In this document: in pieces, positions 24,637 to 29,052 of the stretch
Position numbering within the stretch: the stretch's first letter is position 1
Layout: the number at the start of each line of letters is the position of its first letter
Position numbers and translations under genes: made by a program
Notes under the pieces: generated by a model
The model's input: only the letters and a program-made list of their open reading frames with translations
What the model was told of the DNA's origin: nothing
Database searches by the model: none
Origin: Erysipelotrichaceae bacterium
GTDB taxonomy: Bacteria; Bacillota_I; Bacilli_A; RFN20; CAG-449
NCBI GenBank assembly: GCA_015059045.1
Contig: SVBD01000009.1
Coordinates: 1 to 63,523 of the forward strand
Length of the DNA: 63,523 bases
Direction of reading: 5' to 3'

Positions 24637-24722
24637 TTATTTTTTTCTTTTACTAAACAACTTATCTAATAATAGCCCACTAATACATGAAAGTAGTGTT
24701 CCAATAAAAGCCAAAAGAAAAA
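24637..24722 (-). pseudogene. 3' fragment of an spmA-like gene
   Basis: About 86 bases encoding a C-terminal FLLAFIGTLLSC, ISGLLLDKLF and SKRKK stop. It aligns with the last 30 codons of the intact spmA (26264-26854) with several substitutions and a 9-base deletion. No start or body precedes it. It abuts the ATPase terminator, so it looks like a relic cut by the island. Confidence 0.75.
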
Positions 24723-24742
24723 ACGAGAACTTAATCTCGTTT
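24715..24742 (-). terminator. Terminator of the ATPase gene
   Basis: AAACGAGA (24721-24728) / TCTCGTTT (24735-24742), then TTTTTTC on the minus strand. Confidence 0.8.
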
Positions 24743-26263: not shown

Positions 26264-26854
26264 TTATTTTGTTTTTCTTTTACTAAAAGACCTAAATAAC
26301 TTATCTAATAATAATCCACCTATACAAGAAAGTAGTGTTCCAACAAAGGCTAAAAGAAGAAAATCAGCAGGATTAACGGCTCCATATTTTTGTCTAATTG
26401 CCATAACTGTAGTTGGAAGTATTGTAACCCCTGCAGTATTTAATACTAAAAATGTAACCATCTCATCACTAGCAACTCTAGAATCTTTTTCGGTGGAAAT
26501 TTCTTTCAATCTCTTCATTGCTTTTAATCCTGCTGGAGTGGCTGCAAAGCCAAGTTCAAAAATATTTGCCGATATATTCATTGCAATATAATTCTTTGCT
26601 TCTTGATCTTTTAAATTTGGCATTATTCTTTTTAAAAGTGGATCTAAAGCAATAGCGATTTGATGAATTAATCCTGAATCATACATAATAGTCATAATAC
26701 CCGACCAAAATGTCGCAGAAAAAACTAAAGTACAAACCAAAGATAATGCTTCTTCAGGAAGAGATAAAATAGAAGTAGCCATTTCTACATATCTACCTGT
26801 TAATAATCCATAAGCAAGGGAAACTAATATAATTCCAATAAAAATTTTATTCAT
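26264..26854 (-). CDS. spmA: Spore maturation protein A
   Basis: 196 residues. Nucleoside-recognition (gate-like) membrane domain with FELGFAATPAGLKAMK, MVTFLVLNTAGVTILPTTVMAIR and GLLLDKLF, which line up with Bacillus SpmA. SpmA works with SpmB in spore core dehydration; no spmB is in this window. No strong ribosome site is seen before the ATG. The first 323 bases of the gene region are duplicated at 28733-29055. Confidence 0.88.
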   Translation of the reverse strand: MNKIFIGIILVSLAYGLLTGRYVEMATSILSLPEEALSLVCTLVFSATFWSGIMTIMYDSGLIHQIAIALDPLLKRIMPNLKDQEAKNYIAMNISANIFELGFAATPAGLKAMKRLKEISTEKDSRVASDEMVTFLVLNTAGVTILPTTVMAIRQKYGAVNPADFLLLAFVGTLLSCIGGLLLDKLFRSFSKRKTK

Positions 26855-26896: not shown

Positions 26897-27266
26897 TTAT
26901 AAAAAACTACCCCAATTTTCATATATCACTAAATATTCTTTAACATTATAAATATCTTGACTAATAATCAATCTACAATACTCGTCATTGCCATTAAATT
27001 CATATTTATTTGAATATGTATTTTTTTTAGAAACACCTATTTTATCTCCCAAAGCAGCACCTGCTCTAGTAACGGCTTTACCAAATTTGTCCTCCACCAT
27101 AATAAGAAGTACATTTTATTTTTTGAGTTCCATTACAATGTCTACATCTAGTTGTTATATGAGAAGAGTTATTATTGCCCTCCCATTGTCTGTAGATGAA
27201 TAATCTCCTCCACAAGAAACAGTGCAAATATATAAAACAAAAAAACAACATTAAGATCTTTTTCAT
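26897..27266 (-). pseudogene. Frameshifted lipoprotein with CxxC zinc-ribbon motif
   Basis: Three frames seem to belong to one gene. The start codes MKKILMLFF. After a T7 run, the next frame continues LYICTVSCGGDYSSTDNGR, a classic lipoprotein cleavage site. After a G-rich stretch the first frame resumes with TRCRHCNGTQKIKC, and after GGTGGAGGA the other frame goes on with DKFGKAVTRAGAALGDKIG to the end. This needs three shifts, at runs of T or G, so it is either a decayed gene or affected by sequence error at runs. No good ribosome site. It lies behind a G9 promoter. Confidence 0.55.
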
Positions 27267-27294: not shown

Positions 27295-27326
27295 ATAATA
27301 CCCCCCCCCTTGACTATTTTTGTCAA
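27295..27326 (-). promoter_or_regulatory. Promoter with G9 run in the spacer (phase-variable type 1)
   Basis: Minus strand: consensus -35 TTGACA (27321-27326), then AAAATAGTCAA, nine G (27301-27309) and -10 TATTAT (27295-27300). The spacer is 20 bases; six G would give the optimal 17. It lies about 29 bases before the frameshifted lipoprotein start. Confidence 0.65.
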
Positions 27327-27380: not shown

Positions 27381-27414
27381 AAAAAGTCCCTGACTCCAAA
27401 AAGGGAATCAGGGA
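27381..27414 (-). terminator. Terminator of the unknown three-gene operon
   Basis: TCCCTGACTCC (27387-27397) / GGAATCAGGGA (27404-27414), one mismatch, then TTTTTG on the minus strand. A strong GC-rich stem. Confidence 0.85.
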
Positions 27415-27462: not shown

Positions 27463-27810
27463 TTATGATCTAATATACAATTCAACTGTATAATCATTTT
27501 CATCATACGGTCTATATAAAGAACCCAACTCTTTTTTTAGTGCTTCAAATCCTGAATGAGAAGCTATTTGACGATACATTGAGTTTGAATTATAAACCTT
27601 AATTGTTGTTCTATATTTACTTGTGACAACATAGCCATATTCTCCATATTCATCGTAGCCTTTTACGAATGTATAACAATGTTCTTTTATCCAATTGAAG
27701 GCAACTGAAGTAATAGCTATAGCACATTCACTAGTCATAAGCCCTCCTGATATAGTATTTCTTGGCTGCGTTGTTCTTAAAATATCATATTTGAATGCTA
27801 ACGAAATCAT
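27463..27810 (-). CDS. Unknown protein, third gene of the G9-controlled operon
   Basis: 115 residues, not recognised. No signal or membrane helix; a soluble, mixed alpha/beta composition with many Tyr residues in the second half (YDEYGEYGYVV, SLYRPYDENDY). AAAGGAG lies 6 bases before the ATG. It starts 13 bases after the second gene and is followed by a strong terminator. Confidence 0.72.
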   Translation of the reverse strand: MISLAFKYDILRTTQPRNTISGGLMTSECAIAITSVAFNWIKEHCYTFVKGYDEYGEYGYVVTSKYRTTIKVYNSNSMYRQIASHSGFEALKKELGSLYRPYDENDYTVELYIRS

Positions 27811-27823
27811 AATTTACTCCTTT

Positions 27824-28288
27824 CTAACTTATATAATCCATATACATATCTATATATTCTCTAGGAAATTTATAATTTGCATTCCCAGAAATGCTTTTTA
27901 AATACAAATATAAACCCTCTTCATTAACTACTGCATTTTTTAGTCTGTGATAATGTTCTTCAAAATTATTAGGTAATCCGAACGGGTTATAAACTGAGTT
28001 ACTGTTTTTTATGGCTCTATCTCCTGTTTGAAGTATTATTTTTGCTTGTTTAAGATACCCAGCACACGCTACCGCTTTAAACAATCCGTTTAATACTCCA
28101 GTATATGCTATTTCTTCTGTTGCAATTATTCTCAGATAAATTTCTAACGACTCTTGATACAGACCTCTTCTTTTATAATCAACTGCTTTATCTATTTCCA
28201 TCGCAACATTGGCGGAATAATTTCTTGTAGTACAACCATAATGACTAATGTGATATATTATTTCGCTTATTAATTCTCTTATTGACAT
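27824..28288 (-). CDS. Unknown helical protein, second gene of the operon
   Basis: 154 residues, not recognised. Predicted helical; the part KAVDYKRRGLYQESLEIYLRIIATEE resembles a single TPR-like hairpin. No membrane segment or signal. AGGAG precedes the ATG. Likely transcribed from the G9 promoter at 28657-28683 with its neighbours. Confidence 0.72.
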   Translation of the reverse strand: MSIRELISEIIYHISHYGCTTRNYSANVAMEIDKAVDYKRRGLYQESLEIYLRIIATEEIAYTGVLNGLFKAVACAGYLKQAKIILQTGDRAIKNSNSVYNPFGLPNNFEEHYHRLKNAVVNEEGLYLYLKSISGNANYKFPREYIDMYMDYIS

Positions 28289-28363: not shown

Positions 28364-28621
28364 TTATTTAGTGAAGGTAAATCCTCTTGCCATTAAATAT
28401 CTGATACATTCATCAACATCATCAAACCACACTCTAATACGATCAAAATCTCTAGAGTCACATACAAATCCGAAGTCTATTCTTGTATTTCCATAGATTC
28501 CAGAATATTCCCCGTTCCAATCTCGATAGTCTGCACGGCACATTCTTCCATCTGAAGTTTGAAAAATAGCAAAGTCAGTACCATCGTGATCTTTGCCATA
28601 GCAAAAACATTTCATAATCAT
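28364..28621 (-). CDS. Unknown small protein, first gene of the operon
   Basis: 85 residues, not recognised. A compact, cysteine-bearing, aromatic-rich sequence (MKCFCYGKD, RADYRDWNGEYSGIYGN, RVWFDDVDECIRYLM), with no signal peptide. GGAGG is 8 bases before the ATG at 28621. It is 36 bases downstream of a -10 TATAAT whose spacer holds nine G. Three small soluble proteins in a row under one promoter suggest a compact functional unit, but I cannot assign it. Confidence 0.7.
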   Translation of the reverse strand: MIMKCFCYGKDHDGTDFAIFQTSDGRMCRADYRDWNGEYSGIYGNTRIDFGFVCDSRDFDRIRVWFDDVDECIRYLMARGFTFTK

Positions 28622-28656: not shown

Positions 28657-28683
28657 ATTATACCCCCCCCCGACGAAAATCAA
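28657..28683 (-). promoter_or_regulatory. Promoter with G9 run in the spacer (phase-variable type 2)
   Basis: Minus strand: -35 TTGATT (28678-28683), then TTCGTC, nine G (28663-28671) and a perfect -10 TATAAT (28657-28662). The spacer is 15 bases; eleven G would give 17. It drives the three-gene operon. Confidence 0.7.
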
Positions 28684-28732: not shown

Positions 28733-29052
28733 GGAGTGGCTGCAAAGCCAAGTTCAAAAATATTTGCCGATATATTCATTGCAATATAATTCTTTGCTTC
28801 TTGATCTTTTAAATTTGGCATTATTCTTTTTAAAAGTGGATCTAAAGCAATAGCGATTTGATGAATTAATCCTGAATCATACATAATAGTCATAATACCC
28901 GACCAAAATGTCGCAGAAAAAACTAAAGTACAAACCAAAGATAATGCTTCTTCAGGAAGAGATAAAATAGAAGTAGCCATTTCTACATATCTACCTGTTA
29001 ATAATCCATAAGCAAGGGAAACTAATATAATTCCAATAAAAATTTAATTCAT
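28733..29052 (-). pseudogene. Truncated 5' copy of spmA
   Basis: Matches 26535-26857 for 323 bases with one mismatch. That mismatch turns codon 3 (AAA) into TAA, and the gene is cut after the FAATP region, where unrelated sequence follows. An in-frame internal ATG keeps a 95-codon frame open, but it lacks both ends of the protein. A recent partial duplication. Confidence 0.9.

What the first reader, a model, noticed from the sequence alone, without database searches (positions are those of the whole stretch)
28657..28683. Promoter with nine G between -35 and -10 in front of an unknown three-gene operon
TTGATT, 15-base spacer ending in G9, then TATAAT. Runs this long are very rare in this A/T-rich DNA. 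Slippage of the run changes the -35/-10 distance (eleven G gives 17), so the operon (28364-28621, 27824-28288, 27463-27810) should switch between expression states. Such spacer runs are known for porA/opc in Neisseria and fim in Bordetella but are unusual in Bacillota.
Basis: partly seen in the sequence, partly recalled or inferred. Interest (0 to 1): 0.88.

Follow-up and report, generated by a model that had tools for sequence, protein, structure and literature searches.

The report
Poly-G switch promoters in gut Bacilli
A run of nine G's sits exactly between the two control boxes of a promoter, where copying slips should turn genes on and off at random; the same design recurs in this genome and in many other uncultured gut bacteria, mostly in front of surface proteins, where I found no published description of it.

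Summary
In detail: minus strand TTGATT (28683-28678), 15-nt spacer ending in G9 (28671-28663), TATAAT (28662-28657), RBS and a three-gene operon closed by a terminator. The genome has only five G runs of 9 or more (about 0.1 expected), and all five lie in promoter spacers at the -10 box; the five runs of 6-8 do not. In 98 relatives, 49 such promoters exist against 1 reversed control, 0 with C runs and 1 with the run elsewhere in the spacer. The class (395 genomes) gives 61 against 0. Some genomes carry 20-33. Promoters with the same flanks differ in G count: one genome has 20 copies with identical -35 and spacer, 11 with G9, 7 with G10, 2 with G11. Genes behind them encode signal-peptide or lipoprotein-like products in 58% of cases against 15% of neighbours. 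This is best read as porA-type slipped-strand phase variation. The mechanism is known from Neisseria and Treponema, so this locus is a new member; its abundance in gut Bacillota is what seems unreported. The operon's function is unknown, and switching at this locus is not shown (no reads).

The parts
28678..28683 (-). -35 hexamer TTGATT of the poly-G promoter (4 of 6 to consensus)
28663..28671 (-). G9 tract, last 9 of the 15-nt spacer, abutting the -10
28657..28662 (-). -10 hexamer TATAAT
28364..28621 (-). operon gene 1, 85 aa, no Pfam/PHROG/NCBIfam/PADLOC match; no homologue in the genomes searched
27824..28288 (-). operon gene 2, 154 aa, predicted all-helical, TPR-like at low confidence; one 35%-identical relative (G401, L205) without a G run
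27463..27810 (-). operon gene 3, 115 aa, no family; model uninformative
27387..27414 (-). intrinsic terminator closing the operon (11-bp stem, T tail)
27295..27326 (-). second poly-G promoter TTGACA-AAAATAGTCAA-G9-TATTAT, spacing 20
26897..27266 (-). frameshifted remnant of a small lipoprotein-like gene behind the second promoter (open pieces 27266-27078 and 27100-26897)
28733..29032 (-). 300-bp exact copy of the 5' part of spmB; upstream remnant, stop at codon 3
26264..26854 (-). intact spmB-like gene (Gate domain) downstream of both poly-G modules
24643..24726 (-). 3' remnant of spmB

Best explanation
The G9 tract is a slippage-prone spacer in a sigma-70-type promoter. Gain or loss of G by slipped-strand mispairing changes the -35/-10 distance (15 nt at G9, 17 at G11) and so switches or grades transcription of the three-gene operon between cells. 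It is one of five such promoters in this genome and part of a set spread over gut Bacilli and Clostridia that mainly controls exported proteins. Shown: presence, position and strand specificity, recurrence, and length differences among orthologues and paralogues. Inferred: slippage within the population at this locus, the transcriptional effect, and which length is ON. Because the tract nearly always abuts the -10 with G on the non-template strand, it may also supply the extended -10 G contact (inference). The operon products are small, probably cytosolic accessory proteins of unknown role; gene 2 may be a helical-repeat scaffold (weak).
For: Own genome: 5 of 5 runs of G>=9 in promoter spacers, 0 of 5 runs of G6-G8; chance about 0.003 per run. 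Relatives: 49 matches against 1 reversed control, 0 with C, 1 with the run away from the -10. Class: 61 against 0. 25 genomes chosen because they carry the motif: 151 against 1. Length variation with conserved flanks: L004/L030 G8/G9, L117/L133 G8/G9; 20 identical promoters in G460 with G9 x11, G10 x7, G11 x2, and similar in G461, G441, G456. Exported or lipoprotein-like products 58% against 15%. Array of paralogous surface proteins each with its own G8/G9 promoter. Precedents: porA 11G high, 10G two-fold lower, 9G 13-fold lower (PMC3639595); T. pallidum tp0126 poly-G spacer best at 17 (PMC7864442).
Against: No reads, so no within-population length mix was seen at this locus. The -35 here is weak (TTGATT) and the products lack evident signals, unlike most of the set. 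The three genes have no homologue set in which to compare run length. Spacing 17 is rare among the assembled promoters, so the simple '17 = ON' rule is unproven.
Confidence: 0.8

Rival explanations
1. The G tract is a fixed functional element, such as a binding site, an extended -10 enhancer or a DNA-shape element, and its length variation is neutral drift rather than a switch.
For: Strict position at the -10 and strict G (never C) on the non-template strand suggest a contact or shape role beyond a mere spacer.
Against: Run length varies by 1-2 G among otherwise identical promoters and total spacing ranges from 13 to 21; lengths of 9 or more are where slippage is high, and runs of 6-8 are not in promoters in this genome.
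Confidence: 0.1
2. The G9 promoter is a minor or dead promoter and the operon is transcribed from elsewhere, for example through the spmB remnant upstream, so slippage has little effect.
For: Weak -35 (TTGATT), 15-nt spacing, cassette embedded between spmB fragments.
Against: Perfect TATAAT, RBS and start codon in register, own terminator, and a second poly-G promoter next door with a consensus -35.
Confidence: 0.08
3. Assembly or sequencing artefact at a homopolymer.
For: The genome is a draft in 33 contigs; homopolymer lengths are error-prone, and contig ends are enriched near such promoters (5 within 50 bp against 0.8 expected), though paralogous repeats could cause that.
Against: Independent assemblies from many projects show the same architecture, with controls near zero.
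Confidence: 0.02

Closest known systems
Neisseria meningitidis porA promoter
   Same: Poly-G tract between -35 and -10; 9-11 G; spacing changes promoter strength; surface antigen target (PMC3639595).
   Different: Different phylum. Here five such promoters in one small genome and up to 33 in others, the run nearly always abuts the -10, and this operon's products are not evident surface proteins.
Treponema pallidum tp0126 promoter
   Same: Poly-G between -35 and -10 with 17 nt best; 7-11 G mixtures were measured in vivo at the related tprL promoter (PMC7864442).
   Different: A spirochaete outer-membrane protein gene; the tprL tract itself overlaps the -10 region and is said not to act by spacing.
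Mycoplasma hyorhinis vlp lipoprotein family (from memory)
   Same: Paralogous surface proteins each with its own homopolymer-tract promoter, comparable with the G420 and G460 sets.
   Different: Poly-A rather than poly-G; comparison recalled, not tested.
Invertible promoters of gut bacteria
   Same: Phase variation of surface functions in gut commensals.
   Different: Uses inverted repeats and a recombinase; no inverted repeat flanks this promoter.

Membership tests
porA-type poly-G spacer phase-variable promoter | G tract located between -35 and -10 of a sigma-70-type promoter | tested here: met
porA-type poly-G spacer phase-variable promoter | Tract length varies while flanks are conserved | tested here: inconclusive
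   One assembly only for this locus; met for other promoters of the set: L004/L030, L117/L133, G460 copies
porA-type poly-G spacer phase-variable promoter | Spacing passes through or near the 17-nt optimum within accessible run lengths | tested here: met
   15 nt at G9, 17 at G11
porA-type poly-G spacer phase-variable promoter | Transcript level depends on tract length | not testable with these tools
   needs reporter or RNA-seq
porA-type poly-G spacer phase-variable promoter | Downstream gene encodes a surface or exported product (typical, not strictly defining) | tested here: not met
   This operon: gene 1 scored soluble, gene 2 modelled as all-helical at low confidence, gene 3 not resolved. 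The set as a whole is 58% exported or lipoprotein-like against 15% background
Invertible promoter (inverton) | Short inverted repeats flanking the promoter | tested here: not met
   one search lists no inverted-repeat pair bracketing 28657-28683 at short range

The most novel reading that the evidence does not exclude
Gut Bacillota, including uncultured Bacilli with small genomes, possess large poly-G-promoter phasomes (up to 33 promoters per genome found here) that give combinatorial, mostly-OFF expression of paralogous surface proteins, with a tract architecture (G on the non-template strand, abutting the -10) shared across families, classes and some other phyla.
Probability: 0.65. Interest if true: 0.78.

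Novelty: new member of a known kind. Interest (0 to 1): 0.62.

Why it matters
Phase variation by tract slippage has been worked out mainly in Gram-negative pathogens and mycoplasmas, while in gut commensals attention has gone to invertible promoters. If these poly-G promoters switch, many uncultured gut Bacilli and Clostridia vary their surfaces by a route not described in the papers searched, readable directly from G counts in existing metagenomic reads. It would bear on phage resistance, IgA escape and strain-level colonisation, and reference genomes would each record one arbitrary state of the switch.

Tried and rejected
Naming the operon: Pfam, PHROGs, PADLOC, NCBIfam for all three genes, and (gene 2 or 3 only) PDB sequence search, phage and plasmid tblastn, and viral contigs gave nothing solid; the 31% viral hit to gene 3 (L204, a terminase-small-subunit-like protein) looks like a chance match around GFEALKKE. 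AlphaFold of gene 3 failed (pLDDT 35); gene 2 gave a low-confidence helical repeat with no significant Foldseek match. Distant relatives of one other poly-G-driven gene of this genome (C15) carry no G run of 7 or more nearby, and the other (C17) has no relative in the family, so run length at those loci could not be compared. Inversion as the switch was rejected (no flanking inverted repeats). Contig-end enrichment was considered as evidence of mixed run lengths but kept as weak, since paralogous repeats also break assemblies. The deficit of spacing 17 in Clostridia (2 of 43) is noted, not interpreted firmly.

Full report
Observation. The three ORFs are open frames and end in a strong terminator at 27414-27387. 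A second poly-G promoter, TTGACA-AAAATAGTCAA-G9-TATTAT (27326-27295), lies just past that terminator, in front of a frameshifted lipoprotein-like remnant.

Is it chance? The window is 28% G+C. G runs of 9 or more are expected 0.05-0.10 times in the 1.44-Mb genome; there are five. All five lie between a TTGA-type -35 and a TATAAT-type -10: this one (spacing 15), the one next door (20), C15:39158 (19), C17:23178 (19) and C17:30260 (20). The five runs of 6-8 G are not in such promoters. The chance for one random run to fall so is about 0.003.

Is it general? In 98 relatives the pattern TTGA-N-G7-TANNAT has 49 matches and its reversed control 1. The same promoter with C instead of G: 0. With the G run elsewhere in the spacer: 1. 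In 395 genomes of the class a stricter pattern gives 61 in 28 genomes, control 0. In viral contigs there were only 3. Whole-genome counts in 25 of those positives (selected for having the motif) reach 33 (uncultured Bacilli, Lapin-017 bin44), 20 (Lapin-028 bin30), 20 (Streptobacillus notomytis), 11 and 8 (Hydrogenoanaerobacterium saccharovorans An564), in total 151 against 1 control.

Who is the host? A genome of the same genus (G003) carries a stretch identical to record SVBA01, labelled Erysipelotrichaceae bacterium SIG216. Identical promoter strings tie other members of the class to Anaeroplasma, Merdibacter and Stoquefichus records. So the window is from an uncultured, probably gut-dwelling Bacilli lineage (inference).

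Does the tract vary? No reads were available, but comparisons speak for slippage. L004 and L030 share 96% of upstream sequence and an identical spacer but have G8 and G9; L117 and L133 share 94.5% upstream and have G8 and G9. In the 33-promoter genome, 20 copies have the identical TTGACAATACCACCCT start and differ in run length: 11 with G9, 7 with G10, 2 with G11; three other genomes behave alike. Contigs end within 50 bp of such promoters more often than expected (5 against 0.8), which may reflect mixed lengths or repeats.

What do they control? First genes behind 145 of 159 promoters could be called. Signal-peptide-like or lipoprotein-like products make up 58%, against 15% of 620 neighbouring genes scored by the same rule (a simple hydropathy rule, not a trained predictor). 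One genome (G420) has a row of paralogous secreted, C-terminally anchored proteins, seven of them with their own TTGACAAATYGAATAC-G8/9-TATAAT promoter. In the window's genome the targets include a Ser-rich lipoprotein with weak LRR-adhesin similarity and two membrane proteins. The three-gene operon itself departs from this trend: small products without evident signals, no homologue in 57 relatives, and one distant relative of gene 2 among 395 genomes of the class with no poly-G there.

Mechanism. The best reading is porA-like: slippage changes spacing and thereby promoter strength. In meningococci 11G, 10G and 9G give high, two-fold lower and 13-fold lower PorA (PMC3639595); in Treponema pallidum tp0126 the best spacing is 17 (PMC7864442). 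Here G9 gives 15 and G11 would give 17, so the assembled state is predicted low. One caution: across the set spacings cluster at 18-19 in Bacilli and at 15-16 and 18-19 in Clostridia, with 17 rare. Either most assembled copies are in low states one or two G from the optimum, or a G tract, which tends towards A-form geometry (own knowledge), shifts the optimum (inference). The strict G-not-C rule and the contact with the -10 suggest that the tract also serves as an extended -10 element (inference).

Context. The two poly-G modules lie between a 300-bp exact 5' copy of spmB (28733-29032; stop at codon 3 of that copy) and the intact spmB (26264-26854); a 3' spmB remnant lies at 24643-24726 beyond an AAA/DUF4143 gene. 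The segment looks like an accessory insertion that left its target gene intact in one copy, so it may be lost by recombination between the 300-bp repeats (inference).

Novelty. The kind is known. Nine searches of the open-access library did not turn up a description of poly-G spacer promoters as a widespread set in Bacillota; subscription papers were not searchable. I file the locus as a new member of a known kind; the part that seems unreported is the breadth and size of the set.

Noticed in passing
26535-26834 and 28733-29032; 24643-24726: 300-bp exact duplication of the 5' end of spmB around the poly-G modules, plus a separate 3' remnant of spmB: signs of a recent insertion or recombination event.
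   Followed up: partly
L195 and L196 (G420:C6): Row of paralogous secreted, C-terminally anchored proteins, seven with their own near-identical poly-G promoter (G8 or G9): a candidate antigenic-variation array.
   Followed up: partly
G460 and G461 (genomes of L057 and L043): 33 and 20 poly-G spacer promoters in single small Bacilli genomes; only one of the 33 sits at spacing 17.
   Followed up: partly
L201 (G003:C11) 1321-2196: In a genome of the same genus a G10 promoter drives a 262-aa protein that looks like an AraC-type regulator, followed by lipoproteins: a possible phase-variable regulator.
   Followed up: no
relatives G010, G013, G016: More G>=9 runs than spacer promoters; several lie outside promoters, perhaps inside genes, a possible second, frameshift-type set of phase-variable genes.
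   Followed up: no
Clostridia sites: Spacing of exactly 17 is rare (2 of 43) between peaks at 15-16 and 18-19.
   Followed up: partly
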